A stretch of DNA of 26,080 nt, taken from contig JADGJH010000137.1 of NCBI GenBank assembly GCA_027596945.1, positions 2,418 through 28,497 on the forward strand, written 5' to 3'. Source of the DNA: Physocladia obscura. Lineage: Eukaryota > Chytridiomycota > Chytridiomycetes > Chytridiales > Chytriomycetaceae. This document shows positions 2,009-22,936 of the stretch, piece after piece. The position numbers were made by a program, and so were the translations under genes. The first letter of the stretch is position 1; each line of letters opens with the position of its first letter. The notes beneath the pieces were generated by a model, which saw only the letters and a list, made by a program, of their open reading frames with translations, had not been told where the DNA came from and did no database searches.

Positions 2009-3067
2009 CAAGAAAAGCATTATCTTACATTTTGTAGTAGAATACTTTAGACTCTCCAGCCTCGGCAGACGGAATCAAGTGCTCATCAAGAACAGCAAGA
2101 ATGTCGGAGCAAACATCCTGAAGTTCCTGCTCGATCTTAGAGCGGTAAGACTTGATCTTAGCAACCTGACCCTCATTACCCTTGATTTCTTCTTTTTGTT
2201 CAATTGAAGAAACAATTCTCCACGATCCACGACGTCCTCCAATAACGTTCTTGTAAGCAACAGAGAGCAAGTTGCGTTCCTCGACAGTGAGCTCAACTCC
2301 CAACTAATCAAAAACATACGATTCGATTCAAATGAACGTACAACATGAAAGCCGATAAATTTTTACCTTTGCAACTTCCTATTACATGGCGGGAACATAC
2401 GAAAAAAAACGAATGAGAAAATTTGTCGAATGACATGGACCGTCATAGAATGTCAAAAAACCACTTTGCGATGATTAAGAATCACAAACCTTCATGAACA
2501 CAACCATCTCTGAAGAAAAAATAGCATCAAGTTAGTCAAACACGCAAAAGTAACAGAGAAAGGCAGAAAATAAAAACAGTTTAATAGACACTCTAACAAT
2601 GAAAATAGTGAAAACAAAAAGCTCACCATCATAACGTTCAGCCTGCTCAGCGAGCTTGGCCATGTAGACTTGGTCTTCGCGGGTTCCTAAAGAGAAAAGT
2701 GGCCAGCCATACACCGATTTATGATCAGTAATTGGCAACGACTTGAAAATAAAAAATAAAGAAGAAATGCAGCGGGAGATCAGGCGGCGTAGTAGACAAC
2801 GATACGGCAGCAACGGATCCGATATTTTCGCACGCCGGATGACTATTTCTGGGTGGTACGGGGCTCGACATAATCCAATATTGATTTATATTTTTTTAAG
2901 AGTGGCATACAGAAAAGCTCCAACGAAAAACGCAGCATATTGCATGGCGAAAGCAAAAACGCCGTCAACGGCATCAGTGCCGATACTAAGGAAGTGGGTC
3001 ACACGATACCATCTCGACGGGACATGGACGGTTAAAAGGGTTTTAGACACCAACCCTTCTCAGCCAT
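1484..3067 (-). CDS. BMH1: 14-3-3 protein (258 aa, 7 exons)
   Basis: A complete 14-3-3 phosphopeptide-binding adaptor; it acts as a dimer in cytosol and nucleus. Exons on the minus strand: 3055-3067, 2627-2686, 2490-2509 (20 nt), 2367-2378 (12 nt), 2029-2303, 1604-1944 and 1484-1539, totalling 777 nt with every phase closing. The N-terminus [19 protein letters not shown] is typical. Signature 1 reads [16 protein letters not shown] (residues 45-60) and signature 2 starts [11 protein letters not shown] (217 on). The phosphate-pocket Lys, Arg and Arg-Tyr residues are present. The usual GARRASWR is GGRRGSWR here, a mild variant. The tail is acidic and Glu/Ala-rich and ends in Ser. The first intron is 365 nt, long for this locus. 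The 84-nt intron 1945-2028 has a near-pure A run on the plus strand. The symbol follows the yeast orthologue. Confidence 0.96.
1961..2008. repeat. A-rich simple repeat inside a 14-3-3 intron
   Basis: Almost uninterrupted A (T on the transcribed strand) broken by two TTTAAA-like steps. It lies within intron 1945-2028 of the 14-3-3 gene, where it can serve as an extended polypyrimidine tract before the 3' splice site at 1945. It is likely to vary in length. Confidence 0.8.
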
Positions 3068-3181
3068 TGTGATTTTGCAAAAAACTGTTCGTGATTTTTT
3101 CCGACTTATTCTCTTTTTCCGCAAAAATTTTGGCTTGAAAAAACAAAACACGAAATATGAAGTAAAATAAAACAAAATCAT

Positions 3182-4943
3182 TCACTTATTTTGATCAATC
3201 CAGAATGCGTTAATACCAAACAACACAGCGGGACAATAATCCTTGTCCCCAAGAAGAAGCTGCAGATTTTCTTCAAGCGCATCATCTGCTACACCAACAG
3301 CTACATTGTTTGCTGCACCACCAAGCTTTGCGTAATGCAAATTAATTGCATCACGAAGCTTCTTTTCGTCTTGTTTTGGTTTCAACTGTTTTTTGTATTT
3401 TGTTTTTATACACAGCAGTATGGATCAAATCACTATACCTTCACAACAATTGGCTGAAAGTCTGGGGGCAGTCCGTAGCGTAACACAGATTCTACATATA
3501 CGCGCAAAATCTTGATGTGAATCCAACAAGAAAATACTTCTCCGAAGTTAGTTTTACAGAGACGCAGCAATGTGGTCTTGTAAATAAAACTCTTCAGAAA
3601 AAAATAATCGTAAAATAAATACAGACCCATTGATCTTTTTCTGCAGCACCAGCTTCAGCCAGTGCCTTTTTTTCCAACGCCATTTGTTGTTCATTCCATT
3701 TAAAATCACGAACAATGAATCTGAAAACATGTCAAATGTCCTTTTTTAGACAAAAGAAGGCAAAAAATTGAACAGATTTACTACGAACTTTTCGCTTCGC
3801 GCCTTCTGTGTGAATTCGTCCAAAATTCTCTGAAACAAGGTGACAGTAAACAGCGCATACTCATCATCCTCGGTAACTCGCCTATTTCAATAAACCTAGT
3901 TCAACAAAAAAAAAGTCTAAAATAATGAAAAAATAAAACAATTGTTAGACTTAACTGTGAAGATCTGGGAACAATCATTTGCGTCACAGTTTCATATCTA
4001 TTGAGCCATTCCTTTTCAAGCGATTTCGGAACTGCAACAAGCACAGTAACTAAATACTCAGAATCAAGCACGAAATATTCCTTTTTAACAACATCATTCA
4101 AACTACGGACCGATAAATTTCCCCTAAAATCAGAAAATAGAAAAAAGGACGCTTAAGACAAGCAAGAATCAAAGAAACCAGCCGAAAACTAAAGAAAACA
4201 TTATTCGCACGTTTGTTTCCTCTGCATTCCTGCAAGTGAAGTCTTGATGGTTGAATAGCTTTGCATTTTGTTCTTCATGAGAGTTTCGATTGAATTGACT
4301 TCCTGAACAGAAAAATAAAGTTATCAGATATTTGTAAACAAAAATTATATATAGACCTGAGAAACCAAATCCGTTAATTCGCGTAAACTCTTATCTGTGC
4401 GATATTTCATTGTGTTCCATTGAAATCCTTTCAGATATTGATCGATTGATTCTATAATGGAAAATGGTATTAAAACTGAAAAAAATAAAGAACGCTTGCA
4501 CTTGCTTTCGTTTACAGAAAGATTGCTTCTCCACTGATCGATATTGTTGTTCAGCAGTGCGCGAAGATTGTCGCCAATTTTTACAGTGATGGCTTCGAAC
4601 GCGACATCAGTTTTGGCGAGATCATCGGAAAGAACAACGAGTGTATCGAGGGTTCCCACCTTAAAAAGACAGAATATCAATGAAATAAAGTACATTTGGA
4701 AGATTAGCAAAGTACATTGGGAAGATAAGCTATACTGTTAAAGAAAATGTTTTCTCTTATTCTATGATAGGTTGTTGGCGTTTGCGTTTTTTGTACTGTG
4801 CGGAGTCAAACCTTGAAATCGGGTAGATTAAACGGATATATTTCAGCGAGGTCTTGGCTTCGCGGTGATGCGATTTTGTCGCGCAGCTTCGCGATTGTAT
4901 CTTGTCTCGTTGGGTTTGGTGGTGCAGACAGAATCCAAAACAT
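3182..4943 (-). CDS. VMA5: V-type H+-ATPase subunit C (389 aa, 9 exons)
   Basis: Subunit C of the V1 sector, which bridges the peripheral stalks and controls V1-V0 assembly on vacuolar membranes. Minus-strand exons: 4812-4943, 4506-4659, 4357-4451, 4211-4302, 3956-4123, 3789-3881, 3627-3720, 3439-3576 and 3182-3385; they sum to 1170 nt and all phases agree. The start [11 protein letters not shown] matches the family N-terminus. Diagnostic blocks are [20 protein letters not shown], the [17 protein letters not shown] block, [16 protein letters not shown] and [14 protein letters not shown]. Length is close to the family's usual 380-392 aa. The intron 4452-4505 is best read as a 54-nt GC-AG intron (donor GCAAGT); leaving it in would insert 18 residues that the family lacks. 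The gene ends 114 bp before the 14-3-3 start codon. Identification is very secure. Confidence 0.96.
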
Positions 4944-5660
4944 TTTTTTCTTTTTGTTTCCCCAAATGAAAACAACGGATGTTTCCATGAAGATACACAA
5001 AAAAAAAAGTAAAAATCGAGAAATTAATAAAATAAATACATGCCAAGTCTTTTTATTTTGTATTTTTGGCTGATATGTTATTATAATCTTTTTCAGAGTA
5101 GTGTTTATTTATAACATACACTTATAAGAAAGATAGAAATGAAAATGATAAGAAAATGATCTTTTCGCAAAAGAGACCTTTTGATTTCGAATGCTAGCAC
5201 TCTTGAATGTGTTCTTCTAAATGGTAATGTAATGGTTTGCTTGACTTCTTAATGAAAGAATATTTTGGAAAAAAATTTGTCATTCAGTAAAAACAGAACC
5301 ATTAAGTGATAAAAATAAAAAATACAATGAACAAAAAAATGCATTTCATTTTTACAGACTCACTAACTGATGTTGTAAAAATCCAATTCCATTATGCATG
5401 TCAACACCTCCAAGTATTTTTCCCTCTTACCCTTTGTACTCAGGAAATAAATACACCCTTCCAGCATGAATGCCATCAGCTAATAGACATGGAAAAACAT
5501 ATTGTTTAAGGATTCATTGACAATTTTTTGCAAACGTCAAGGATTCGGGACAGCTATATTTGTTTTATTGTGTTGAGGGCCTGAACATGCCATGTTTCAT
5601 TCTCCACGAAACTGGCGAATGATTCTCATTGATCCCATTGCCCAAATAGTTTTCCAAAAC
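4944..5660. other. AT-rich intergenic stretch, no gene seen
   Basis: Upstream of V-ATPase subunit C. Both strands are full of stops and no family motif, tRNA-like fold or repeat is visible. CpG is sparse but present. It forms the transition from the gene block to the CpG-free block that follows. Confidence 0.6.
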
Positions 5661-5829
5661 TATATTTCAACAGAGCTATAACGTAGTTTTTAAATGCTTT
5701 TAATGCTGGTTTTGGTGTTAGAATTGAAAATTAGTGAAATAAGGCTAAAAAAATAAAACAGGTGATATTCAAATGGTTTGAAATAAAACCTTGAAAAATT
5801 GAAAAGAGGAAAAATAGATAAAATTTTGA

Positions 5830-6700
5830 GCGAACTGTTGTACACATCATATTGTACCAAAATGATTTGACATCACCAAATCCAGAATCAAAACATTGTA
5901 GTATCAGCATAATCAAGTCACAGTTGGTATTATTTTTGACAACTAGACAATATTTCTTAAAAATATTGATATATTTCATGAATGGTGCAACTTCAATTGT
6001 AATATTTCTGATTTCAGTCCCATCAAATTCCATTTGATTTATATTGGTGTTGGCTCTGATTGTAGTAATTTCCATTCCATCATTTAGATTTATTTGTTCA
6101 GTTATGTCAATTGGGTCAGATAAGACAGCTGAATCTGTTGAGTTTGGTAACTTAATTCAGTAGGACACTACTTTTTCAGAAAATTTATAGACATGCTGAA
6201 AAAATATATTCACCTAATTGCAAAAGATCAATCCACAGGACTGTTAGAATCTGTAATGCCTAAAAATAGAGATAGTAGTTGCCCAGATATTTTTTTACGC
6301 TTTGTGCATAAAATTTGCAAGCCATCAACTGTTACATGATGCCCAATAATGCAATTTGGATGTATATCAAACTCTCTTTTGTTTTTGTCTATGAATTCTT
6401 CTTGACCAAGATTTGATACTTGAAAAAGTTACAAAAATTTTGAAATGCCATACATGAAAGCACCAGTGTTTCTAATGCTATACAGAAATAGTAATATTTG
6501 AATGAAAATATTGAAAATGCAGCTGCAACTTACACATAGACAGGAAACACTGGCTGATTGTTCCAAAGAAGAGGATTCCCTTTATAGTTCAAGAATTTTT
6601 CACTGTTAGGAGTGATTAAAGAGTTGGCACTGCTTTGATGTAGTGATGGAGACCAAATTTGCTTTTGTCCTCTACACATCTAATGCATAATTTTACTTCA
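5830..6700 (-). pseudogene. Unidentified minus-strand coding remnants in CpG-free block 1
   Basis: Three well-reading stretches follow one another on the minus strand. About 6700-6540 encodes a segment ending WNNQPVFPVYV. A plausible 56-nt intron (donor GTAAGT) then leads to VIRNTGAFMYGIS, an in-frame TAA, and a further open piece containing FDIHPNCIIGHHVTVDG and LSLFLGITDSNSP (to about 6265). About 6165-5830 is open for roughly 110 codons and contains INLNDGMEITT and FDSGFGDVKSFWYN. I recognise no domain. The mix of intact splice sites with internal stops suggests a decayed intron-containing gene or transposon gene. CGN arginine codons are almost absent. Confidence 0.4.
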
Positions 6701-7074
6701 ATAAAAAAATTATTTAGGAATGTTTTCTTACTTGATACTGAAAAAATAAAACACAACAGTGGCAAGCAAGTGGCATCAGCAGAAACAAATGATGTTTACT
6801 AAAGCAAGAAAATTTAAGATGAATCAAGATAAATTTGGAAAGATGAAAAGATTTCAGAAGAATTTAAGAATGATTGATTGAAAAGAAATGAAAAGATGCA
6901 AGTTCTTTTGCATCTTATTGGAATTACAACTTTTCCAACAGTATCATATAAGACTGGACTGAATGATATGGGATATGTTTGAAGAAAATTAAAATAAACA
7001 CAGAATCTCAACTTTTGAAATGAAACTCCTTTTTTTTTTTTTAATAAACTCAAACACACAAAAAATAAAGTTCA

Positions 7075-7965
7075 TTATTCATTCTGGCAGTTGCTTATAT
7101 TGTCATCACTGTTAAGACCATTTTCTTCATCTTTGTGATATTCTTCATCTGGCATATTTGGAATTAATTGAAAATTTGCAGCAGCCCCTGGTGTCTCAAT
7201 TGGAGCCACTCTGTGAATTATTCTGGTGATTGATTATTTATTTATTTTTAAATTACACTCATTTGAAACCAGTTGATTTAAAATGTCTTGATAACAGTAT
7301 TGAAGTCTTTGCTTTAACAACTTACTATTTTTTTCTTGACCTTCAATCACAACCAGTGCTATGTGGAATTGATCCTGAATATGACTAACTGCAGTGTCTG
7401 CCCTCAGCTGTCTTCCAAATAAATTGTGTATTTCAGATAGAGGAGGTGATTGAATAGCATGCTGTAGCATTGCTGGATTGCAAAGGAAGATTGCAGCCCA
7501 GTCCTCCCAGATACATCTTTACCTTGAAGATGTATATTTGCTTCTTGTTGTTGCTGTACAACTTCATCAATACAAGCTTGGTTTGAAGGCCCTGATTGAT
7601 CTGTACCATTGGAACCAGCATTAAGATGAGCTATTATTGACTTGTGCTCAGATGATTTTGCCACTTGGCATGAAAAGCCGTATATGAGTATTGTCACATT
7701 ACTATTATTATTACCAGCAGCCAGTGTTGCTAGATTACTGTCTTTGATTGGGTGAAGAGGGGTCACCATTGATCTAATAACACCAATATCAAACTGCACA
7801 ATTAAATGATACAAAAACTTCACCTCCAAAAAAATATGGTCTGCTACCTTTTGAGATAATAAAATCTGAAAAATTATTAATTGTAATTCCTTCATTGTTT
7901 AATTGACCTGCATTGTTAACAACCTTGCTTTTTGTTAAAATTCCATGGCCAGTGGCAACAGTGTG
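7075..7965 (-). pseudogene. Unidentified intron-containing gene, 3' part, with an apparent frameshift
   Basis: The minus-strand frame is open through pieces reading LFHTVATGHGILTKS and NNAGQLNNEGITINNFSDF. Near 7790 it needs a one-base shift, then continues with VIRSMVTPLHPIKDSN and SEHKSIIAHLNAGSN. A 50-nt GT-AG intron (7473-7522) joins in phase to an exon (7259-7472) with QAMLQHAIQSPPLSEIHN. A very short 36-nt intron (7223-7258) joins to the last exon (7075-7222), which ends in an acidic tail (NMPDEEYHKDEENG) and a stop at 7075-7077. That frames agree across both introns argues it was a real spliced gene. No family is recognised. The frameshift could be decay, an unrecognised intron or a base error. 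Confidence 0.45.
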
Positions 7966-8410
7966 GAATAATTCACTGTCAAATATAATTAGTCCATTAA
8001 TTTTTTGTGTACAATAAATAAAAATTGAAATACAAAACTTTCATTAAAGATTTGGAATTCAAGTTCTAATCATAACTGAGATGCACTGAAAGAAACCATC
8101 TACAGTGATCACCACACTGAAATAACATATAAAGATAAAGTACACAAGAAACATCATACGCAATATTTCTGTATGTTAGTCAGCTGCCTTATTAAACAGG
8201 ATTTCTTTATCATTGAGTAACATAACATATACACATAGTGACTCTCTCAGGACTTGTTATGCATACATGAGACTTCAGCTTGTGTAGATAATAAGGGTAG
8301 CATTGTAATAATAACAGAGATGAATAAAGCTGTACTTTTGGCCAAAGGCACTATTGGTACAACAACTGTGCAATGTGCCATAATGGGCTGTCCCAATAAA
8401 ACTATTTTTA

Positions 8411-8902
8411 TTACTCATTCACAATTAATGCTAAAAAATGCTGGAGACCTAGAAATGGCTCTGTATTAATTGTATGCACTTTTGACAACATATTGTATGT
8501 TTTACAAGTGATGGATTGATTGACAAGTTTTTCTAAGTGCTCTAACTTTGAAAATTTGCATAGAAAAATGGAAAAATTGGTACCACCTACCAGGATTTTG
8601 ATTAAAGACACTGCTGGTATCACCAAAAGAGATAAATAAAGCATTTGCCACTTAGCTAAGATAGCAGGTGATCAATCAAGCCAAGGTGCCACCAAGACAC
8701 TGGGAAATATAAAACCATTGGTTTCTTTTCTAAAATAGTCAGAACAAATCAATAAAATTATATCATCTCTAAAACTCTTTGTTACACACATCAAATCAAC
8801 ACTTTTGCCAGTAGTTTTGGTCATGTAGCATCCCACAGAGTTGTTTTCAATTGGGCTGATTCCCATTGAACTGTATTGCTTCCAAATGTGTCCCACTTTC
8901 AT
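8411..8902 (-). pseudogene. Unidentified coding remnant beside ATG6
   Basis: Two successive minus-strand open stretches (8902-8672 and 8644-8411) lie at the edge of CpG-free block 1, on the same strand as the remnants further on. The first contains MTKTTGKSVDLMCVTKSFRD and reads like protein. The second is antisense to a plus-strand open stretch (8254-8469), and I cannot decide which strand was coding there. No domain is recognised. It may be the 5' part of the gene at 7075-7965. Confidence 0.25.
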
Positions 8903-9037
8903 TCTTCTGTAATTTGTAGAGCTTGGCTAGTGGAATAAGTGTTAGGGCAATCATAGCAAGAATCGCAACAAAAGCAAAAGCAAATTCCAAATTTCTTCAG
9001 AAATCAACAACAATATTGCCACCTGTTTATTTTTCAC

Positions 9038-10479
9038 TCATTTTGCAGAGACACAATACACAAGAAGCCATCGAATATTTATCAGCATATATTTTAAAGC
9101 TCGAGTCCACTGTTCATCTTGGTTAAACTGCACTTTGATTGAAATATTTTCGATTTTATCCTTATTGATTCTAGTTCAAAAAAATATAATGGATATATAG
9201 TAAGAATGCTGCAACTGTAAATTTTAGAATTTTGCAAACTTACAAATATGGTAGTTTAAGTTTTGCATCTCTTTGATGAATGTGGTCACCAAGTTGTTGA
9301 ATACAGTCGAGAAAAGACACAAGGGCATTATCAAATCGACGATTCCAGAATAAAACAGCTGTGAAATCATTTGATCCATACCTGCGTAAAAAAAATTAGC
9401 AAAGTAAATAAAATACTGCAAAGCACTAACAATTCATAAACAGTTCGATCGGTGGGTTTATCGCTGTCGATTTTTTCGATTCTTGAAAAACTACCCATAG
9501 GAACGAGTTTATATCTGACCAGAAAGTACTTAGCTCATCATAAAAGAGATTATACTAACCCTTTGAAAACAAATCGCAGTTTTGATGCCAACACATCAAC
9601 TAGCAATAAAGCCTGGCCCAAAGCTGCATTAATTTCAGACCACTCAACAGGTTGGTTCGGTAGTCTTCCCAGCCGAAATCCATTGATGGACGCAAAGGGC
9701 CCGTCATGCCAAATATAAAAAGCATCATTATATACATTGGTAGATTCAAGCCTGTTCAACTGTGCTTTCGCAATAGCTTTTGTGGAGAGCATGGAAGCAT
9801 GGTGAGCAGAAATATTTATGGCTTGAAGTTGGAGAGCGTTCACATCTGCCCAGTACTGCGTTTCCTGGCGATCCAGATCCGCAAGTTCGCGTTCGGCGTC
9901 TGCAAGTTGTGAAGCGACGTAACGGGACGCGTCTTGGAGACGAGAATATTCGGTAAGAGTTTCACGAAGAAGAGTTTCGTCGTCTTTGCTATCAACATTT
10001 TTGTCATCGTGATTGTTGTTACTGTCGCAGTTTGAATCCAGAGCTGTTAAATGAGCGGCATATGCATCTCGTTCACGCCGCGCATCGGCAAGCGCTGTTT
10101 CAAGACGCAGCTGTACTTCTGCTGCACATTCAACACACAGGAGACATTCGGCTGGGGCAGTTACATCGGTTGTTGTTTGCTCAGCTTCACTATCGATCAA
10201 CCGCTGGAGCCGCGCGGTTGTGTTGAGCCGTGCCGATGCTGAGTAATTTTTCGCCCGGAGACCACTAACAGCTGTCGGTATTGCTTTTGCTGGTACTGTG
10301 ATTGTTGTTGCCGTTAGACTCTGCTTTGCCGCACGGTCTTCGCGTTCGCTCAGAACAACAAACGATCCACCACCGTCTGATGTGCCGTCCAACTTGTCTC
10401 TGTCTTTTGTTTCCTTAACGTCTTTATCTGCTGATACCGTTCGCAATATGCTGCCACATTCATCGCAGATGGCGTTCAT
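9038..10479 (-). CDS. ATG6: Autophagy protein ATG6 / Beclin 1 (424 aa, 4 exons)
   Basis: A core subunit of the class III PI3-kinase (Vps34) complexes that start autophagosome formation and act in vacuolar sorting. Minus-strand exons: 9560-10479, 9431-9514, 9244-9381 and 9038-9170 (1275 nt, phases close). The N-terminus has the CxxC pair CDECG (C5, C8). The second cluster is CLLCVEC (C112-C118). A coiled coil covers about residues 119-215. The evolutionarily conserved domain holds FYIWHDGPFASINGFRLGRL and PVEWSEINAALGQ, then YKLVPMGSFSRIE, FWNRRFDNALVSFLDC and the closing QFNQDEQWTRALKYML. The start at 10477-10479 fits the family; an in-frame ATG at 10522-10524 would add 15 residues. The linker at residues 20-105 is poorly conserved. 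The intron 9515-9559 is only 45 nt. Unlike its flanks the gene is CpG-rich. Confidence 0.95.
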
Positions 10480-11061
10480 TCTTCTTGAAATCCGAAATTC
10501 AGATTGTTCGTCTCGGAGTTGCATATTGGCTTCTGACCAGAGCTTACTAATTAATGAGGAAGCAGACCAAAAAATTGAAATAACTTAGACAGAGCAAATT
10601 TAGTTGAGTTGGGGGCAAGAATAGGGCCTACTCCATCATCACTTCAATTCTAAAGAGTAAATTGGCCTTTGTATCCAAATGTCATAATCCTCAGGTAAGT
10701 TCTATCCATAGCGCAGTTAAGTCTGTGATGTCTAAAATCTAAATAATGACTTATGAAACCCAGGGACATGGGGCTTGTGATTGACAAGATTTTTCTTGAA
10801 AATCATCCTTCAATTATTTTCATAAATCACCAACAAGAGCATTCAAATAATAATAATGAAGAAACTTATATATATTTATTGAAGTGAACACATACTAAAA
10901 TGATATACTTACTTGCATGATATTGTGATGGAGATTCTTTGATTTTTAATGGTTAGCTTTGTGTAGGTAGAATACAGGCAAAAGCCTGGTAATTTGTGTA
11001 TGTGAACCAATTCAGGGTAGATTGCCATGTCATTTTGCAGGACTCATTATTCTTAAACCTG

Positions 11062-11332
11062 TTACATATCAACATTGACTTTCAAATTGCAGGTGTATTT
11101 TCCTGATCCGTTTTTGCCCTCTCTCAATCCTCCTTCTTCTTTGCTGCAGCCTCTGCAGTAGCCCATTTTGTTCAACTGCTTTTTGTTGGCTTTGGTGAAT
11201 GTCAACTTTAATAAAATTTTCCAGCTTTGCAAGTATCTTTTTAACTGTTCTTCCCATGCTTGAAAACTCAAAGACTTTCACAATCTCATTTGCAGCCACA
11301 TTTCCGGTTTTATTGCAACTGAATGGCATCAA
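11062..11332 (-). pseudogene. Unidentified coding remnant with a basic helical segment
   Basis: A minus-strand stretch reads ANEIVKVFEFSSMGRTVKKI and then a very basic run (QQRRRRIERGQKRIRK). Upstream sequence (to about 11530) continues in shifted frames, for example KIVEAAKLNFDAIQLQ, so the reading frame is broken. The profile resembles nucleic-acid-binding ORFs of retroelements but no motif proves it. It lies inside CpG-free block 2. Confidence 0.25.
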
Positions 11333-12547
11333 AATTCAATTTTGCAGCTTCCACAATTTTTTCTTTGTTGAAAGGAAAATTTTTGTTTCTTCAAAAGCAT
11401 GATGAATAATAGTTTGCAAAATAATGGATCTGGCTTCAATTGCAGTCAAGATTAGATTTTGCCAATTTTGCCCAATATTTCTATCATAAAGTTTCTTCTT
11501 TGAAAGTCAACATATCTTGTTTTTCATGTTTGTAAATATTACTGAATCCTGTAGCTACAGGAACTGAGTCATGTTTACTGGCAGGAAGAAGCCATCAATT
11601 GTTAATTTATATTTTATTTATTTATTGCCTGTCTGTTTGTCTTTGGTTATTCACATTTTTTTATAGTTTCTTTCGTTTCTTTCTTCCACTTTGTATTTGA
11701 AATTTATCAGTTTTTGGGTTTTTCTCCTTTTTTCTTTTTTTTGCAGTAAAACAAATGTTTTCATAACTGAAAATGATTGGCATTATAATGAATGGCAGTT
11801 AGCTCCTTCACTTAGTTTGTGCTGACTTTAGACAGGTCACTGTTTTGTTTAGTTGATTAATAGCTTAATATCTTTATTAACAAACTAAAGTTGATTGTGC
11901 AAACAGTGAATACATGTGCTGTGTCAAATCTGCTGTTACAAGAGACTGTAAATGCCTCCATAGTATCTTGCAACTGTCTTTTCTACAGTTTTCTAAATGT
12001 TTCTATTGATTTCTAGTACAATTATTTATGAAAAATGCTGATGTTCAAAGCCCTTGTACAATACAGGGCATCTTCCACTCTGCTCTCTAGCCTGCTATAC
12101 AAGCTATGCTCTTGTTTAAAATGATCAAGGAGAGTGTGTATTTACAGGCATTTGAACATTATAGTAAGTGGAGTGGCCTGGGAATAATTCACTACCAATA
12201 GTGCCAAAATAAAATGAAGGCTGCATTGGTCAAACACATCAAAATAGCAACAGCTACACTCAGTTTTTTGAGAAATGAAAGAATGAATGGTTTTTTCACT
12301 ACAATCACCACAGCTTTATCCAATTTTTGTATGCTTCCAGATAGAATATGGATTTGCACTAAAAGTTCATACAGAGGAAACTAAGTTGACCAAAAAGGTA
12401 CAAAACACAGCATTGTATGCTCTTTTTAGAGCAGGCAATAATATTTCAATAATTGTTACACATAATTAGTGCTACAATGTAACTAGGAATCACTTTCCAA
12501 ATGCAACCTTCATGCACAGACTACACATGTGCAATGATTTATGAAAC

Positions 12548-12917
12548 TTGGCTGCAATAACATACCAGGAAACGCTAAAGCAACAGATGCAGCCAAACAC
12601 AGTCTCTTGTATCCACAACAGCATGTACAAAAATTGCTTTTGGACTGGAATTGTACAACTGGCACACAATGCAACAATTCTGGATCTAGACATTTCTGTG
12701 AAAAAATTCTCTGAGGAATCTGTGGGATCAGCAAAAGCTTTTGGACTAATAGTGGAAAAGATGTGCTGAGAGTGTGCAAGAAACAAAACAACACTGGATG
12801 TGTGCAATAATAGCATAGAAAATGAAATTCAGGATGTACTGTGGGCCACACACTTGATGGACTGGAAGGAATCATACTTGGCAATGAAATGGGCACAACT
12901 GACAACAATCAAATAAA
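12548..12917 (+). pseudogene. Unidentified plus-strand coding remnant
   Basis: A plus-strand frame is open for about 120 codons apart from one TGA (near 12766). It contains TYQETLKQQMQPNTVSC, ISVKKFSEESVGSAKAFG and, beyond the stop, ATHLMDWKESYLAMKWAQL. Amino-acid use looks protein-like, better than the antisense frames, which are rich in Cys and Phe. No domain is recognised. It is on the opposite strand to the retrotransposon further right, so a different element is likely. Confidence 0.28.
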
Positions 12918-14437
12918 AATGGATATGTAAATAGACAACAAGCAGCTTACAGCTACACATATGGTCAAGACCCAGGACATGAGCCTGGAAGAAATTGCTG
13001 AGTAGGCCCTTTCAGCTGTTGTTCCTTTTTTACCCTGGTCCCAAGAGCAATCATGTCCAGTAACTACTGTACTCTTTTTTTTAAATCATAAGCACTTACC
13101 AAAAGTGCAGGGAACTTATGTGTAGATGGATTTATAGCTTGGATGTAGGAAATATGAAGGAAATGGGATTTTGTTATTCTGTTTTTTGATTTTACATCTC
13201 TTAACTTTTCTTGTATTCTTTTGAAATTCATTTTTTGTTAAGCAATGGTGAATAAAATAATTGAAGATGTAAGTGGTGGTGTGGGGAGAAAATTTCCTGA
13301 AATTGACTGCTGTCAAACTGCAAACAACCTTCAGACAATGCAACACCAATACACAACACAGCCTGAATGCACAACAATGGCAAATGCTGCTGCTCAGACT
13401 TTATTATCATTATTGAGAGTAAATTCTCTAACTAAAGCCCATCCTCAGACTTTGAAGTTGGTTTCTAAGTGCCTGACAGCTTAATGTACTACTGTGCACT
13501 AGTTGCAGCTCATCAGAAAGCATTGCCCTCCTTTATTAATTATTTCCTCCACTCTTGCAACTTGCATTAGTTTTTTTTTGCTTGTCATCCCAGCAATCTG
13601 GTAGCCATTCTAGGTTCCCTCAAAATATCTCCACCTCCCTTCTTCTGTGATTCCACTCCCTTCAATCCCTGTCACTTTGCTATTTCAGGTGGCCATCTAA
13701 AGTCCACTTTGTCATTCTTATTCCACTGCCTCCTAGGCCCAAATCCTCCTCTTAACCTTCAGGTGGCCAGAAAAATTGCTGTGGGAAAAGGCCACCAGCT
13801 CTTCCCTCCATTTTTTATCACTGCAAAAAACCCTGTGAGAAAAACTCTGCAAGCTCTTCATCTACTTTCTCTTTCATTGATTCACTATGCTTCTCTACAT
13901 TACTAGCACAGAGTATAGTTGGATTGTTAAAATCACTAAGTGTAGTGACAAACTCACTATTTATTTGTTATAGATCTCTGGGGTCTTGTGCTTGTTAGCT
14001 TCTTTTACATTTTCTTCCCATTTCTACTTCCCATTTGCATCTTTTGTGTATTGTGTAGTTGCTTTGCTTTACTTCTGCCAGTTTTGGTGTTTGTTTTGGA
14101 GTGCTTACTTCAGTTGGTTTCTTTAGGCCCTGGTTTGAATAGATTGTTTGATTTCTTTGGTTTTGCAGAGAGTGTGCTTCATCTTCATATACTGGTGGCA
14201 CTACAACAGTTTTGCTTCAATTAGCTTTCTCTTCTTCATCTTGTTTATGTCACATTTTTCCACCCAGCAGGTACTTTCTTAATCTCCATTTTGTGGTTTT
14301 CCAACATTTGTGCTTCCAACTGCCTCTCAGAATATTCTCCACTATGTTCATGTCTTTCATTAAGTGTAATTTCTGCTTTGCAGTTAGGCATCTTTTTCCT
14401 TTCTGTATTTTTGCTGCTTGTTTCCTCTTTTTTTCTG

Positions 14438-15353
14438 TTAGAGTCTTTGTCCCATCATTTCTCTGTCATTATCATACCAGGTCCCAAGCCATGCTCTAAA
14501 TTTTTCTGTACAGCCTTTTTCAACTATTACCCATTTTTTTTCTTCCTTTGTTTTATAGTGGTTATCATTTGCAACTGTGCTTTTTGTATGTTCTGAGCCT
14601 CTTTTTCCTGCTTTCTGTTTCTTTTCTTTTTTTTGTGCTGCTTCATCAGTTTTTTTGCCAAGAAGGTTTACATTTTCATGCATTATTTGAACTCTTTCCT
14701 CATGGGGGTTTTTGCACTGCCATAGGCATTCATTGGATTCAGGTATATTTTCATTACAGCATCTGCAGCTTCCATCCTGATATAGTGTTGGCTTGTTTCT
14801 TGCCATAATCACTTGAGTTGGCAGTCTGTTGTGAATTTTTTGGACAGTTTTTGAAGCTGTATGAGTAGATTTCCTAATGTCTGCCAAGATGTTAATTTTT
14901 TTTGGATGAAACTTAATGAGTGATTGTCATTGTTATCAAGCTTTCTTGGTGTCCTAAATCTGCCAAGAAGTCTGCCTTTTGATTCCCTGCCCTTTGACTT
15001 TTATGAGTATTGCTGGTGACCCAGGCCTGCTTCTTACTATTTCACAAGTTACTGTTGCACCATATGTATCCTCAATTTTCCACAGGTCTCTTGGTTTCAT
15101 ATTCTACTTTTGTTTTTGTAGCTTTTTGTGCTCATGCATGACATTGGCATTGTCAATAACAAATTTTTTTTCTCCTCCTGTGAGAAGTGCTACTTGGGCA
15201 GTAACTCTCTCTGTTTTTGTTCACAAGGTCCATCCATTTGTTTTGAAACTTATGACTTTTTCTTTGTTTTGTCCCTTTGTGATTACTACACCCCCAGCCA
15301 GGCTTGGATGTGTGCCATCTTTGGTGATGGATGAGTCATCACTATATATTTGA
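14438..15353 (-). mobile_element. Decayed, 5'-truncated non-LTR (LINE) retrotransposon: RNase H domain and C-terminal Cys knuckle
   Basis: On the minus strand the sequence reads IYSDDSSITKDGTHPSLAGG (about 15353-15290), the first RNase HI strand with its catalytic Asp. Next come TERVTAQVALLTGG (the Glu is Gln here), FVIDNANVMHEH (third acidic site, about 15150) and KVKGQ. After a one-base shift comes GNQKADFLADLG (14952-14987), the GN-x-x-AD motif with the last catalytic Asp. Downstream are HNRLPTQ and a Cys cluster CRCC...NECLWQC (14714-14767), the arrangement found at the C-terminus of RNase H-bearing LINEs. In-frame stops and shifts show it is dead. The TGA at 15221-15223 sits where CGA would fit. 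No reverse transcriptase is recognisable before the CpG block ends at 16147, so the copy is 5'-truncated. Confidence 0.75.
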
Positions 15354-16236
15354 TCTTTTTCTGGACTATTTGTGTTGTTTGTCCCAATTATTGTGAGAAT
15401 TTCTTCTGGGGTGCATTAAAAGTTTCAGCTTGTCTTTTACCCTCCTTTCTCATTTCTTCTGTTGTGCCTTCAGCCTCCTTATGCACAAGGTAGAAGTTTA
15501 TCAGTGATAGTTTTATTACTTGATAGTCTTCTTCCATGTCCATGTTTGCATTGTTTCCTGGTTTTATGCTGTGTTCCTGGTTATTTTCTTCAAACTGTTC
15601 AACTGTTCTCCTTTCTTCTTTCTCAATTGGTCTGGGAATTTCATTTGCACTGTGTTATATTTGACTCTTTTGCTCTTCCTTATTTGATCCTCATTTTTCC
15701 AAGTAGTGGTTATTCTGTATACAAAGTCCTCTCCATCTCCTACATCTATTCTACAATCTACCATGTCTATTGCATTGATATTTCCCATTCTCTGGGTTTT
15801 TCTTTTAGACTGCTGTTTTATAACGTCCTCTGTTTTAAGCTGTAGTTTCCATCTCAATGTGATTGTTGATAAAGGGGTTTGGCTTGAATTCTTGTTGCTC
15901 TGCTAACCTTGTTTCACCATTACTGTCCTTTTTCATCAGAGTATATTCAGAAAAATATGCCACATTATATTACTATGTGGTGCTGCTTTAGAAATAACCA
16001 GCAAATATAAACAGTTTTGGATAACAACTTGAACTCACTCAACATCCAAAACAGTCCATGGCTTCAAAATTTCTTATAATGGATAGAATTGCCTCAACAT
16101 GTATCTATACAAATATTCATGGACAATCAGGGATTAGTTATAAAATCCGAAGGCAAAATCAAAAGTTCATAATCAATGAAATAGACATAATTGCAGCAAC
16201 ATCAATTTTTCAAATTCGATTTAAAATTATAAAAAA

Positions 16237-18393
16237 CTAATTTTCTGTATTAATCACAAAACTTGATTCAATTTTAACTTCTGATAAAACATACTCTGAC
16301 ACAAGATGAAAGAATCCAATTGCTTTAGCATGTTCATGAGAAACACGTGACACAAAAATACAGTCATCCTGGCAAACGAACAGCCCCAAGTCAATGCTAT
16401 CATTTCCATCAGCATTGCAAATTTCATCAAATAGCATCTGTCCATTCTTTTCAAACTGTGTAATTGGCAAGAGAGCAAGAAAAACCGAATTTCCGGTGAA
16501 AATCACAACTAAGCTGAACTCATGCAATTGCGGCGCATAAAGTCCAGCCAACTTCAAAGAAAGCATGGAAATCGCTTCTTCGGAAACTTTATCCCCACAA
16601 TTATGCTCAGAGTAGCGCTGGGTAATCTCGGGTGATATTCTTTTCAAAAATGATGCAAGCCATCCTGAAACCAAACGGTCAGTGTTCTGTGTTATATCCA
16701 GTTCATCGGTTCCTATGACCACATTATGGAGATTTTCGTGATACGAGACAATAATGCGAATAGAGTTTCTTCCCACGTTTTGGAATTTAAGCGCCCTGCG
16801 TTGATTTGGGGGCGCATTTGGTGCAAATAAAATACCAGTGCCATATTCGACCGCAACAGGATGCTGGTGCTGCGAATGAGCAGATGTGGGCATTAAATGC
16901 ACATAACGTTTTATAGCTTGTGAAAAATGACGCATGCAAACATTTGGAAGCCAAGACTCCAACACTGAGATGTCTTCGTGGCAATCACAAGTTTGCGGGC
17001 GTGCAACTCTCAATCCAACTGGCAGAGCACCAGCAAGTACGAGTCCATGCATGAAATCTCTCACACGTTTGATATCATGTTCCTTGTCGGAAATATAATT
17101 GACCTCCACTTTCAAATGGTGTATTGCCAGACGTCCGTAAATTTGATCGGCATCATAGTAACTCGCACGATCGTCTTCAAAAGATTGACGGAGATCGAAA
17201 ACTGAGCCGGAACGTGCTCCTACGCGATGAAGAATCCGATCCATGGCGTGAACGCAAAAAAGAAGGGTTTGAGGTGGATCACTGGGAGAATTGTCGATAA
17301 CCAAATGATAAAGTTTTTTTGCTTGAAGATTTTGACTTTCCGCTTGAGCAATTTCTTGTTTTGTCATTTCGACATGAGTGTATACAGCTTGCAAAAAAAG
17401 TAAGTCCTTACTTTTTGAGAAACAAAAAGTTAATAGGTAGAATACCGTGCTTAGCCAAGCAGCGCTCCTGAAGAGTCCATACACGTTTGTTGTAGCTCAT
17501 GTTCCTGCATTGATTGATAGCAATGCGTACATCCGATACAAGCTTATCTAAAGTTGTGTCCCACCACTCAAAACCTTTTTTTGATTTATTAAATGAGTCC
17601 TTCTCCAATTTGGTTTTAACGGCTTTGAGAAAAATTGTGATTTTGTCTTGGGCATTAGTGTAGATTGCAAAATCATCTGCATCCAAAATAATAAAGGTTC
17701 TAGCAGCATTCTCGTAAATGGCGTCCATACGTTGCACGTGGTATTCCTTATCTTCTTGCGAGTCTTGATCGATCGATAAAAAGTCAACCCATATCGGTAG
17801 CTTGGACACTTCAGCGATTAGGGCAATGTGGTGGATTTTTTGAACTGGATTCACTGGTACACGTCTGCCAAAGAGAGTTAAATCTTGGGTCGCTGCAAAC
17901 AAACATAAACAGGGAGTTCAATTTCAATAAACCGTCGAATATTGTATATTGTATTCGAACTTGAGTTCGGAATTGAAAGAAAACCTGAAAAAAAACAAAC
18001 CTTGCCAAACATGGGAGACTGTTCCGATTTTTTGTCCACTTAGTTTCTGATCAACAATTTTCATATGGACTCCGTCGTTTTTGCTTGCGGAAAATACCAT
18101 GAATTTAGTGTGAACAGCGTTTGGATCTAAAAGATGAATATGTTATTTGACCTTGTTTACTGATTAGTTGTGTTTTTTGGAATGAGTGCTCACCACTCGA
18201 TTCATTACCAACAACATCTCTTTGTTTGCGAGCCTTCAAAGCAACATTAAAAAACTTTTCCCCCTTAGTTTGGACACATATATTATTATGAACCTGTTCT
18301 GTCGATAAACTTTATAGAACTTACCCAACCCATTTGAATCAATTTTTCCAAGAATTTGCTGCAAAATGAAAAACATGCAATGAGAAGTTTCAT
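16237..18393 (-). CDS. HET (heterokaryon incompatibility) domain protein, 620 aa, 5 exons
   Basis: Minus-strand exons: 18325-18393, 18194-18263, 18001-18126, 17446-17892 and 16237-17387 (1863 nt, all phases close). HET blocks appear in order: VSHVWQ (residues 83-88, matching the usual SYVWG-like block), IWVDFLSIDQDSQED (from 122), the HVQRMDAIYENAARTFIILD block and YNKRVWTLQER (about 223-232). In filamentous ascomycetes HET domains trigger non-self cell death; in other fungi the role is mostly unknown. The C-terminal 380 residues (238-620) match no family I recognise. They contain LRVARPQTCDCHED and end without a membrane segment. The start ATG (18391-18393) is the first Met in frame with exon 1; exon 1 is the least certain part. 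The gene is CpG-rich, in contrast to the block at its 3' end. Confidence 0.85.
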
Positions 18394-19156: not shown

Positions 19157-21630
19157 CTAAACTAGAAAAAAGTTGAGAAGAAAGAAAAGGCCTGGGATAG
19201 AAACTAGATGCGCACAACCGCTGTACAAGTTGACACGGGCTGCGGTAACTGTACCAGGAATATAACTATTACCAGGCGCAACATACGCAGCTACAGTCAC
19301 AGGAACAGTTGCGATAGTTGTTGTTGAAGCGAGGATTTGAGTGATAGTTTTGGCAGAAGCTGTAGAACTACTTTGAGTGACAGTTGCGCCAATAGTGGTT
19401 GTTTGAGTGTTGGTTGCTGTCGCTGTAAATCCAGTAGACGATGCGGTTGTGGAGCTAACTGAAGTAGACGATGTGGCAGTATCAATTTGAGCAGAAGCAG
19501 TTGTGTTAGCACTTGTGGATGATCCTGTGACTCCTGTGGTGCTGGAAGTTGTGGAATTTCTTGTGAGTGTTGTGGTGCCTCTAGTCGTAGCATCAGTAGT
19601 CGCAGTGGTGGAGCCAGGAGTAGCACTGCCAGTAGTGGCAGCAGTGGAAGTACCAGTAATCGCACCAATAGAAGAACCAGTAGCGGCAGAAGTAGTGGAA
19701 GTGGTAGTAATATTATCCACTGTAGTAGTAGGAGCAATCGTATTGGTGGTGGTGGTAGTTGTAGTGGATACAGAAACAGTAGCAGTTGTACTTGTAGTAG
19801 TTGTAGCCAAAGTACTTGTAGTCGTAGTAGTCGCAGTAGTAGTTGTTGTTGTGGGTGTGATTGCAGTTGTCGTGGTAGTAGCAATGGCCGTGGTAGTTGT
19901 ACCAGCTGTGGTGGGCTCGGTTGTAGTAGTAGCAGTAGTAGTTGTAGTAGTAGTTGTTGTTGTTGCAGTCGTAGTTGTTGTAGTCGTGGTACTAGTGGTG
20001 GTAGTTGTAGTTGTAGTAGTAGTAGTGGGTTTGGGCGTTGTAGCAGTAGTAGTGGTAGTAGTAGTTGTTGTTGTAGTCGTAGTGGTAGTAGTGGGTTTGG
20101 TTGTAGTTGTTGTTGTTGTTGTAGTCGTGGTACTAGTAGTGGTTGGCTTGGTTGTAGTAGTGGTAGTTGTAGTTGTAGTAGTAGTAGTGGGTTTGGGCGT
20201 TGTAGTAGTAGTTGTTGTTGTAGTCGTAGTGGTAGTAGTGGGTTTGGTTGTAGTTGTTGTAGTTGTTGTAGTCGTGGTACTAGTAGTGATGGGCTTGGTT
20301 GTAGTAGTGGTAGTAGTAGTTGTAGTGGGTTTGGCCGTTGTAGTAGTAGTGGTAGTAGTTGTTGTTGTTGTGGTCGTAGTAGCAGAAGTGGGCTTGCTTG
20401 TAGTAGTAGTTGTTGTTGTAGTCGTGGTACTAGTAGTGATGGGCTTGGTCGTAGTGGTAGTTGTTATCGTAGTTGTGGTACTAGTAGTAGTCGTGGTGGG
20501 CTTGGTTGTAGTAGTAGTAGTAGCAGGCTTGGTTGTAGTTGTAGGTGTTGTGGTTGTGGTTGTGGTCGTCGTCGTTCTTGTTGATATGGTTGTCGTTGTA
20601 GGCTTAGTTGTGGTAGTCGTGGCAGTCGTTGTTTTAGAGGTGGCAAGTCCAAGTGCGCCAAGAAACGCTTTTCCATAAGCTCCAGGAACCCCTTGACTCC
20701 CATTTTCATCCCGCTCCGCAACCCAAAAAGAAACAAGCGACACATAGTTAACGCTCTTCACCCAAGCCGCAAGCTGATCGGCATTTGTAAGTGTAAAATT
20801 TTCCGCTGTATCGTCGTTAAGCCCGACCATAACAGTGACGCCGATGCTGCCGACTTGGTTGCCGACCTGTGCGAAAGTTTTTTCAGCTGCGCCAATGGCA
20901 GCATTTGCCATGTCAGTAACGCCATTAGCATCAATAGTGGGATCGTAGAAGTCGAATGCCATGATGTTCAGAACGTCCACAATGACGTTGTAGTAGGCAG
21001 CCGATTGGAGGATGTAGAGACCGTCGCTTGTGAGGCCATACGATGCCACAGGAAGTGTATAGGACACTTTGATATTGGGATAATATTTTTGGATGTATGA
21101 GATGGCCTGGTTTCGTCGGTCAATGGATCCTTTACTCACGGCTTCTTGGTATGCCAGGTTTTCAACATCAAAGTCAGCCCAGGTTGCGTTGTTAGCAGTC
21201 AAAACACTGATGTATTTTTCGGCAAGGGTGACAACGTCGGTCGTAGTATTGGCCAAGTCAGAACCAAGTTGTCCACCGAATGAAATACGGTAGTTGCCAC
21301 CAAGAGACTAGTGATAAATAAGAATTTAAGACGATCACGTTCAACTAAAGGTGACAGAAAAAAACGAACCCGAATGTCCGCCATCTGCGCCGAATAGTAC
21401 ACGCCATCGGTAGCCGATACTCCATTCCACTGCGGGTTTCCCGCACTGTCGGCCGTAACAAACGCCAAAGTAAAAGATGTAACACCGGTTTGGGAGTTGT
21501 ACTTGATGACGTCAAAGTTGTCCAGCGATTCAATGTCTACATACGGCGCAAACGTCAAGGCAGTAATCTGCTCCACAGCCTGCAGAGCACTGGCTAACAG
21601 CAGTGCAAAGATTCCATACACAATATGCAT
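19157..21630 (-). CDS. Secreted GPI-anchored GH18 chitinase with long Thr-rich linker (803 aa)
   Basis: A family 18 glycoside hydrolase hydrolysing chitin at the cell wall or surface. Exons: 21370-21630 and 19157-21307, separated by a 62-nt phase-0 intron. A signal peptide is clear (MHIVYGIFALLLASALQA). The catalytic signature is WADFDVE (DxDxE, acid Glu at 136), preceded by ISFGGQLGSDLA and followed by SYTLPVASYGL and VLNIMAFDFYD. This resembles the bacterial-like chitinase D / fungal wall-chitinase branch. The domain ends near residue 309. It is followed by some 300 residues of almost pure Thr with spaced Lys-Pro, then a Ser/Thr/Ala/Gly-rich part. This is surely heavily O-glycosylated and forms a stalk. 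The protein ends with a hydrophobic tail (IPGLFFLLNFFLV) after small residues, as expected of a GPI signal. No chitin-binding module was seen. Confidence 0.92.
19740..20640 (-). repeat. Degenerate Thr-codon tandem repeat in the chitinase linker
   Basis: About 900 bp of ACN codons (GTN on the plus strand) with larger repeated blocks. A phrase containing GTGGGTTTGG recurs near 20028, 20089, 20187 and 20238, and one containing GTACTAGTAGTGATGGGCTT near 20277 and 20428. The units encode runs of Thr ended by Lys-Pro or Pro-Lys-Pro. The block structure suggests expansion by unequal exchange, so length probably varies between strains. Because no NAC codon is a stop, the plus strand is also open here (a Val-rich shadow). 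Confidence 0.85.
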
Positions 21631-22233
21631 TTTTCGGTTTTTTTGGATAAGGGTTGCTCTGACAAATGAAAGATGCCATTTTCTAATCTCTTTTTTTTTT
21701 TAATTGATAAAAAGTCCGCATTCCAACAAGACTGCTAATTCGTTTGGAAAAGTTATTTTGACTTTATACTAAATTTCTAATGTGCTTTTTGCATGTCTCA
21801 CACACTCTTTGTGTCTTTTTTCCGGAAGGGTTAGCGAGCTAGTGGAAATTGGTTCAGGGTTTCTCACTCAAATCAAAATTTCATCAATCAAAATTTGTAG
21901 AAAAAAATACGGAAGTAATCTGTTTCGTTTATTGTCTTTTGGATTTAATTCATGCGCATTAATGATTAGCGCAAACAAAAAAAACCTGTGAAGAATTTTA
22001 AAAAAAAATTGTTTGCTAGATAGCCCTTTGTCTGATTTACATAAATCATGGGTAGATGGAAATGGGAATTTCCAAAGAAATAATCTGCAAAATTTGTTCC
22101 TTCTTCCGTTTGATCTATACGATCAGTTTTTCGTTCGACTACGCCATCCTTCGAATTCCGTCAGTTTTTTCAAGCGAAACTGATACGGAAAACGCTGGTA
22201 CTTCTGTCAGATACATCACGTAATGTGAACATT
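21631..22233. other. Intergenic region upstream of the chitinase, no gene seen
   Basis: AT-rich, with a T run at 21691-21700 and many stops on both strands. A plus-strand open stretch at 21782-21991 has no protein-like features. The chitinase promoter should lie in 21640-22000; no motif is identified. Confidence 0.5.
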
Positions 22234-22936
22234 TTAATGGAGGAAAAAATTACACTTCTTCTGAGCTACCGGAAGCCTTTTGGACTGACCAATTCCCTTC
22301 AAGATGGCTCGAACATGCTGGATCTTGATAGCATGAATTCGTGATTCCATGTGGTTGTCAGGGCAGCGACGCTGTGATCTTACCCAGTTGAAGAACCGGT
22401 CGTAGTCGGTCATGAATGTGGCTTTTGTTATTGGAATGTTCTTTTTATAGAATAGTGGAATTTGAGGCTTAAGGGGTAAAAATTCGTTACATCCGACTAG
22501 AAGTGAAGGAAGAAAAATTGGGTAAGAGATTTAGCTAATAAGTATTTATTCAACTTTCAAGAAACAATAAAAAATTATTCCTTATTTCTTCAAGGAAGTG
22601 TCATGACAGCATCACGCGACGTGAGAAAATCTCGCACCAGATAGATTGATCTCGCTTCATTGGCTCGATCAAGGAGACGGGTTCCCAACTTCGTAAATTC
22701 TGGCAACATCAATCTTGTCGAATGTCAGCGAGAAAGGTCACAAAAAATAATACGCCATAGAACCCTTGTATGTCTGGTTTCGGTGGCCGCTGGCAAATTT
22801 TCCGATTTTCTTCAAAGCATCTGATGATGATTCTGCAGATAATCGTTGGAATACTCCACCGGCTGTTGTGCATCCGCAGTCAACAAATGAAGGCAAACAT
22901 AATTGGGAGTAATTCTGACAGAAATCGAACTTGAAA
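22234..22936 (-). CDS. Unidentified spliced gene, 3' exons
   Basis: Three minus-strand pieces join in consistent phase. The first, 22764-22936, has an acceptor at 22937-22939; it carries a Cys-rich segment (CLPSFVDCGCTTAGG) and KKIGKFASGHRNQTYK. The second, 22616-22699, reads EFTKLGTRLLDRANEARSIY. The third, 22234-22496, contains GCNEFLPLKPQIPLFYKKN, TDYDRFFNWVRSQRRCPDNH and HAIKIQHVRAILKG, and ends at a stop at 22234-22236. Introns would be 64 and 119 nt with GT-AG ends. Codon use is protein-like and CpGs occur normally. I recognise no family. The 5' end is not found: the sequence upstream to 23100 has no convincing exon or ATG, so the gene may be truncated or transposon-derived. Confidence 0.42.

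What the first reader, a model, noticed from the sequence alone, without database searches (positions are those of the whole stretch)
5660..16147. Two nearly CpG-free blocks flank a CpG-rich ATG6 gene with sharp edges
By eye I counted 4 CpGs in 5660-8960 and 6 in 10561-16147, a few percent of the number expected from base composition, while 9560-10479 and the HET gene have normal to high CpG. TpG/CpA are common in the blocks. Both edges fall within about 100 bp of gene boundaries. Known mechanism: cytosine methylation at CpG followed by deamination. That a functional gene is kept as a small protected segment inside about 10.5 kb of CpG-free DNA suggests a boundary or an active demethylation or exclusion process at ATG6.
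Basis: partly seen in the sequence, partly recalled or inferred. Interest (0 to 1): 0.75.

Follow-up and report, generated by a model that had tools for sequence, protein, structure and literature searches.

The report
CpG-eroded transposon blocks around ATG6
In this chytrid fungus, transposon-filled DNA on both sides of a normal autophagy gene has lost nearly all its CG pairs, most likely because transposons are chemically marked and the mark mutates over time, and the same pattern occurs elsewhere in the genome, so there is no sign that this gene is specially guarded.

Summary
The counts are real. CpG observed/expected is 0.06 in 5660-8960 and 0.03 in 10561-16147, with GpC normal (1.27, 1.26) and TpG/CpA raised. 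ATG6 between them is intact, found at one place in the genome, with normal CpG. The genome is a chytrid's, probably order Chytridiales.

The blocks are decayed transposons. Block 1 ends towards ATG6 in a solo LTR (7933-8801, 5-bp target duplication) with matches on 38 other contigs; block 2 is a patchwork of other repeats. Among 11 LTR copies, former CpGs now read TpG or CpA independently; 17 of 275 cells are still CpG. That is the trace of CpG methylation and deamination, without a RIP signature. The genome encodes a DNMT5-like methyltransferase.

The ATG6-specific part does not hold. Over 56 sampled 2.5-kb stretches about 15% of the DNA is CpG-poor in the same way; another island exists, with one edge inside a reading frame. 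The edges here are repeat ends plus about 160 bp; I tested whether that length is a rule and it is not. Ordinary mechanism, clean example in a little-studied phylum.

The parts
5617..8963 (.). CpG-depleted block 1 (ragged left edge 5617-5920; a separate CpG-free stretch 5189-5534 lies outside it)
7928..8806 (.). Solo LTR 7933-8801 (TGTT...AACA) with 5-bp target-site duplication CTTTT (7928-7932, 8802-8806); matches on 38 other contigs (lower bound, 40 of 207 candidates scored), 1 CpG against 22.7 expected
6897..7925 (.). Low-copy repeat remnants (matches on C166, C761 and short pieces elsewhere)
5922..6896 (.). Depleted DNA for which the search found no second copy (1 CpG against 22.3 expected); the tool warns that no match does not prove rarity
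8802..8963 (.). Flank between LTR and ATG6, 0 CpG against 6.5 expected
9038..10524 (-). ATG6/Beclin gene, 4 exons (10524-9560, 9514-9431, 9381-9244, 9170-9038), 439 aa, intact, normal CpG (76 against 66.7 expected)
10525..10679 (.). ATG6 upstream flank, 0 CpG against 5.4 expected, between start codon and repeat end
10515..16147 (.). CpG-depleted block 2
10680..10820 (.). Repeat end: matches on 15 other contigs begin within 4 bp of 10680 (begins TGTCATAATC; type not determined)
11763..12176 (.). 414-bp repeat with sharp ends, matches over most of its length on 32 other contigs, 0 CpG against 12.3 expected
12654..13276 (.). Repeat D, several partial copies
13386..15948 (-). Longer patchwork matching mainly C1222, C482, C703 and C1056, parts on other contigs; broken reading frames on the minus strand with no Pfam family above its cut-off
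16237..17902 (-). HET-domain gene flanking block 2, normal CpG (65 against 69.8 expected)
2500..4943 (-). V-ATPase subunit C gene flanking block 1 (start codon 4943; lower limit approximate), normal CpG (100 against 88.0)

Best explanation
Both blocks are intergenic DNA filled by old transposable elements in a chytrid genome that methylates CpG in transposons but not in genes. Methylated CpG deaminates to TpG/CpA and is not fully repaired, so transposons and a short flank lose nearly all CpG while the unmethylated gene keeps it. The sharp edges at ATG6 are the ends of a solo LTR (8801) and of another repeat (10680), each extended by about 160 bp. Shown by sequence: CpG-only loss, TpG/CpA gain, repeat identity, independent decay in copies, bimodality in genome samples, methyltransferase genes. 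Inferred: methylation itself, and that genes are unmethylated.
For: CpG o/e 0.03-0.06 with GpC 1.26-1.27 and raised TpG/CpA; TpA not raised, CpT/CpC 1.0-1.09. Block 1 ends in a solo LTR; 6 of 9 copies examined (of 11 aligned) have an exact 5-bp target duplication, the window copy among them. In 11 LTR copies, 26 column pairs look like former CpG, against 20-27 expected per copy from base composition; cells there are CG 17, TG 103, CA 122, TA 16, other 17, while the GpC control keeps GC in 278 of 640. In 281 500-bp windows from evenly chosen contigs CpG o/e is bimodal (45 below 0.3, 200 above 0.7) while no GpC window is below 0.6. Four contigs carry a cytosine-methyltransferase domain. The one on C134 matches PDB 7r76/7t02 at E 3.9e-100; the table names that molecule Rad8, and that it is Cryptococcus DNMT5 is recalled. 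It has SNF2 matches downstream on the same strand. Papers, passages seen: in the chytrid Spizellomyces 5mC is confined to transposons (PMC12695648); CpG loss in transposons without RIP in Austropuccinia (PMC8063080).
Against: No methylation data. Inferred former CpGs are fewer than expected in two other families (6 against about 12 in the 414-bp repeat, 9 against about 29 in F), so part of their loss predates the split of those copies. 975 bp of block 1 is depleted but the search found no second copy; it may be older repeat or spread. A few CpGs persist (5535-5831). PMC12695648 (passages) reports that genome-wide CpG depletion does not track 5mC level across distant eukaryotes (Naegleria low 5mC but depleted, prasinophytes the reverse). 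PMC13297926 (passages) speaks of near-complete replacement of 5mC by 6mA as the dominant mark in early-diverging fungi. Completeness of the 21.8-Mb assembly is unknown.
Confidence: 0.87

Rival explanations
1. A RIP-like process actively mutates C in CpG of repeats in a burst, rather than slow deamination of methylated CpG.
For: Loss is nearly complete (17 of 275 cells in inferred LTR sites still CpG) while copies differ by 9.4% elsewhere; a star-tree estimate gives about 29 times the ordinary per-base rate, above the roughly tenfold that I recall for mammals.
Against: Classic RIP acts in CpA context and raises TpA; here CpA is raised, TpA/ApT is 0.71 and 0.74 (0.64 in ATG6) and (CpA+TpG)/(ApC+GpT) is 1.64 and 1.61 (1.38 in ATG6), the opposite of RIP. 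Stretches with no second copy found are depleted too. The rate estimate rests on a star tree and on sites chosen for being variable.
Confidence: 0.1
2. ATG6 is actively protected, by a boundary element or demethylation, against methylation spreading from both sides.
For: CpG is normal from 8964 to 10514 and drops outside; in the window 155-199 bp beyond three repeat ends are depleted too, so something stops the spread.
Against: The four other gene regions counted in the window have CpG o/e 0.84-1.15, and 200 of 281 sampled windows are CpG-normal, so ATG6 is not singular. Among 16 flanks of one repeat end the first CpG lies anywhere from 2 to 299 bp out. The TET/JBP search found nothing, but its control rang nowhere, so it is uninformative.
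Confidence: 0.05
3. Base-composition difference or foreign origin of the inserted DNA, with no methylation.
For: Blocks are more AT-rich (GC 0.32-0.36).
Against: GpC is normal with the same C and G content, and copies of one LTR carry TG in some and CA in others at the same place (18 column pairs).
Confidence: 0.02

Closest known systems
CpG depletion of transposons by 5mC deamination in the rust Austropuccinia psidii (PMC8063080, passages seen)
   Same: CpG loss in transposons, no classic RIP indices, methylation genes present, deamination proposed.
   Different: Other phylum (Basidiomycota), gigabase genome; here loss is compared copy by copy at one LTR family.
5mC confined to transposons in the chytrid Spizellomyces punctatus, 6mA on expressed genes (PMC12695648, passages seen)
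   Same: Same phylum; transposons marked, genes free; MT-A70 matches also present here.
   Different: Measured methylation there; only the mutational trace here. The passages seen do not report transposon CpG loss for it.
RIP in Ascomycota (PMC12543289 and PMC13297926, passages seen)
   Same: C-to-T loss in repeats.
   Different: CpA preference and TpA gain are absent here.
CpG depletion of Coccidioides repeats (Neafsey et al. 2010; seen only as a citation in PMC8063080, otherwise recalled)
   Same: CpG-specific loss in fungal repeats.
   Different: Ascomycete; details recalled, not read.

Membership tests
5mC-decayed transposon DNA | CpG depleted while GpC is normal and TpG/CpA are raised | tested here: met
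5mC-decayed transposon DNA | Depleted DNA is transposon-derived | tested here: met
   for about 2.2 kb of the stretches listed the searches found no second copy
5mC-decayed transposon DNA | Independent TpG/CpA decay of the same sites in different copies | tested here: met
   LTR family; weaker in the 414-bp and F families
5mC-decayed transposon DNA | CpG methyltransferase in the genome | tested here: met
   (by sequence; activity not tested)
5mC-decayed transposon DNA | 5mC present on remaining CpGs | not testable with these tools
   no methylation data held
RIP | CpA-to-TpA bias, raised TpA/ApT | tested here: not met
   TpA/ApT 0.71 and 0.74, CpA raised
RIP | RID-type methyltransferase | tested here: inconclusive
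   the C78 gene is in the cytosine-methyltransferase family but its class is unresolved
DNMT5 (gene on C134) | DNMT5-type methyltransferase domain | tested here: met
   E 3.9e-100 to 7r76/7t02 (named Rad8 in the table; DNMT5 identity of that entry recalled)
DNMT5 (gene on C134) | SNF2 ATPase downstream in the same gene | tested here: met
   matches at C134:23008-23511 and 22114-22587, minus strand, both reported with a 1074-aa open frame; the first has 3 stops inside its span.
Solo LTR (7933-8801) | TG...CA ends and 5-bp target-site duplication, no internal region between | tested here: met
   CTTTT on both sides
Protected CpG island with boundary at ATG6 | Behaviour differs from other genes next to transposons | tested here: not met
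   from sequence only; methylation not tested

The most novel reading that the evidence does not exclude
CpG loss in this chytrid is not slow deamination but a fast CpG-directed, RIP-like mutation of repeats, in a phylum where I know of no RIP, coupled to a maintenance methylase (DNMT5-like) and stopping at transcription units.
Probability: 0.1. Interest if true: 0.6.

Novelty: new member of a known kind. Interest (0 to 1): 0.3.

Why it matters
It shows that in a chytrid a plain sequence count can outline which DNA is probably kept as transposon chromatin, at fine scale, without methylation data. If the estimate of about 29-fold faster CpG loss holds, chytrid transposons would be a good system for asking how fast methylated CpG is lost and how far methylation spreads past a transposon end. 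For ATG6 itself nothing special follows.

Tried and rejected
A constant one-nucleosome spread. In one search, 8 of the 38 repeat ends listed, picked after the fact because they abut CpG-normal DNA, had 9 CpG against 39.1 expected in flank 0-160 bp and 40 against 38.7 in 160-320 bp (summed by hand from its rows), with several recoveries at 163-175 bp; L094 was an exception. I then fetched 12 more flanks of one repeat end. With the four already held the pooled o/e is 0.56, 0.60, 0.79, 0.73, 0.77 in successive 80-bp bins, with no return to 1. The 12 new ones alone (summed by hand) give 40 against 62.4 (0.64) and 27 against 45 (0.60); without the CpG-rich L107, 0.40 and 0.53. No step at 160, so rejected as a rule.

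Absence of TET/JBP, SRA and BAH: the controls rang nowhere, so nothing can be said. Methyltransferase class of the C78 gene: no useful solved-structure match, unresolved. Transposon proteins in block 2: no Pfam family above its cut-off; a non-LTR element is only my impression. Rfam and tRNA searches of the window: no hits.

Dropped before counts: one search left out 500-bp windows with more than 50 N (281 kept from 60 samples; two samples all N); one search used 56 of 60 samples (those with more than 1250 N dropped). TE starts in L102, L106 and L107 were shifted by 2-4 bases to the shared start; L100 was left 1 base off. One search examined 9 of the 11 LTR copies for duplications.
Full report
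What was checked. Block 1 (5660-8960) has 5 CpG against 85.9 expected and block 2 (10561-16147) has 6 against 180.2. GpC is normal (o/e 1.27 and 1.26), TpG and CpA are raised, TpA is not. CpT and CpC are near 1 in the blocks, so only CpG is lost. Edges by likelihood are 5683 (5617-5920), 8964 (8899-9072), 10515 (10515-10559) and 16148 (16056-16346); a two-state HMM gives 5832, 9070, 10515 and 16148. The left edge is ragged: 5189-5534 is CpG-free, 5535-5831 has 5 CpGs against 7.5 expected.

Where it is. The window is contig C137:2418-28497 of a 21.76-Mb genome in 1222 contigs. Among the best ATG6 matches are Rhizoclosmatium (41% identity over 94% of the query), Chytriomyces hyalinus (52% over 61%) and Obelidium (54% over 60%), chytrids of the order Chytridiales (order recalled). 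Genes around the blocks are V-ATPase subunit C (start 4943), ATG6, and a HET-domain gene.

ATG6 is intact. I extended the 324-aa first reading frame by three exons with GT-AG introns to a 439-aa protein ending at 9038; the splice sites were chosen by eye. The search with its first reading frame found one place in the genome. Its coding span has 76 CpG against 66.7 expected. The CpG-normal segment is therefore about the whole gene, 8964-10514.

What the blocks are. Block 1 ends towards ATG6 in a repeat, 7933-8801, with matches on 38 other contigs (40 of 207 candidates were scored, so this is a lower bound). It begins TGTT, ends AACA and is flanked by CTTTT on both sides. Exact 5-bp duplications appear in 6 of 9 copies examined; L004 has one mismatch, L006 none, and L008 fits if its end is shifted. 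It is a solo LTR. It was found in 3 of 60 evenly chosen 2.5-kb samples. Block 2 is a patchwork: a repeat end at 10680 shared by 15 other contigs, a 414-bp repeat at 11763-12176 matching 32 other contigs, and pieces up to 15948. The repeat-matched stretches listed have 8 CpG against 203.3 expected; the listed stretches for which no second copy was found have 6 against 59.4, and 5 of those 6 lie in 5496-5709. The tool warns that no match does not show that a sequence is rare.

How CpG was lost. In 11 aligned LTR copies, 26 neighbouring column pairs look like former CpG, against 20-27 expected per copy from composition. Their cells are CG 17, TG 103, CA 122, TA 16, other 17. Eighteen pairs have TG in some copies and CA in others; the same test on GpC gives 7, and GC is kept in 278 of 640 cells. 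So the ancestor of this family probably had a normal CpG number and the copies lost them separately. Two smaller families show this less: 6 sites against about 12 (6 copies), and 9 against about 29 (4 copies), so part of their loss is shared. A rough star-tree estimate gives about 29 times the ordinary per-base rate at former CpGs; it is biased by the choice of variable sites.

Genome-wide. In 281 500-bp windows from 60 samples taken at regular steps through the contig list, 45 have CpG o/e below 0.3, 36 lie between, and 200 are above 0.7, while no GpC window is below 0.6. Low windows have shorter open frames (median 300 against 544.5 bp). An HMM gives 15.2% of 139 kb in the low state over 56 samples; it shows four low segments with normal DNA on both sides and no complete normal island, which 2.5-kb samples would rarely hold. 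The contig lengths seen were all 10 kb or longer, so repeats are probably under-represented. Locus L021, fetched for its methyltransferase, shows another island: a DNMT2-like gene CpG-normal at 1109-2017 with depleted DNA on both sides, whose reading frame runs on to 2595 through depleted DNA (4 CpG against 18.7 in 2100-2595). So edges do not always follow gene ends, and genes are not always spared.

The edges. In the window, 162 bp beyond the LTR (0 CpG, 6.5 expected), 155 bp between the 10680 repeat end and the ATG6 start (0, 5.4) and 199 bp after 15948 (0, 4.7) are depleted. The idea of a fixed one-nucleosome spread came from eight ends chosen after the fact and failed on 12 further flanks.

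The enzymes. Four contigs match the cytosine methyltransferase family. C134 matches PDB 7r76/7t02, named Rad8 in the table and recalled to be Cryptococcus DNMT5, at E 3.9e-100, with SNF2 matches downstream on the same strand. C1197 and C830 are DNMT2-like, the tRNA methyltransferase class. C78 matches the family but its class is unresolved. Two contigs match MT-A70, the 6mA family. The review PMC13297926 (passages) lists DNMT5 for Basidiomycota and some Mucoromycota; the review PMC7862722 (passages) says methyltransferases of early-diverging fungi including Chytridiomycota were already grouped by Bewick et al. 2019, which is not held. So DNMT5 in a chytrid is not claimed as new.

Against the reading. 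There are no methylation data. PMC12695648 (passages) finds no general link between 5mC level and CpG depletion over distant eukaryotes, and PMC13297926 (passages) describes early-diverging fungi as dominated by 6mA rather than 5mC; the first of these nevertheless reports 5mC confined to transposons in the chytrid Spizellomyces.

Judgement. The special claim about ATG6 is not supported. In the rows listed by searches I saw no paper on CpG depletion of transposons in a Chytridiales genome; I judged by listings and the passages read only. The pattern is a new example of a known kind.

Noticed in passing
L021:1109-2595 (G000:C1197): A DNMT2-like gene sits as a CpG-normal island inside depleted DNA, but the last part of its reading frame is itself CpG-depleted (4 against 18.7 expected in 2100-2595).
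   Followed up: partly
G000:C1197 and G000:C830: Two different DNMT2-type methyltransferase genes in one genome.
   Followed up: no
16237-17902: A HET-domain gene in a chytrid; the domain is best known from Dikarya (recalled).
   Followed up: no
5535-5831: A small patch with near-normal CpG (5 against 7.5) between CpG-free stretches, upstream of the V-ATPase subunit C gene.
   Followed up: no
19157-21256: A reading frame with a very long threonine-rich repeat tract, no Pfam family found.
   Followed up: no
L094, L107, L108, L105 (flanks of the 10680 repeat end): These flanks have CpGs within 10 bp of the repeat end, unlike the other 12 of 16; possibly young insertions.
   Followed up: no
G000:C627 and G000:C329: Matches to MT-A70, the 6mA methyltransferase family.
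   Followed up: no
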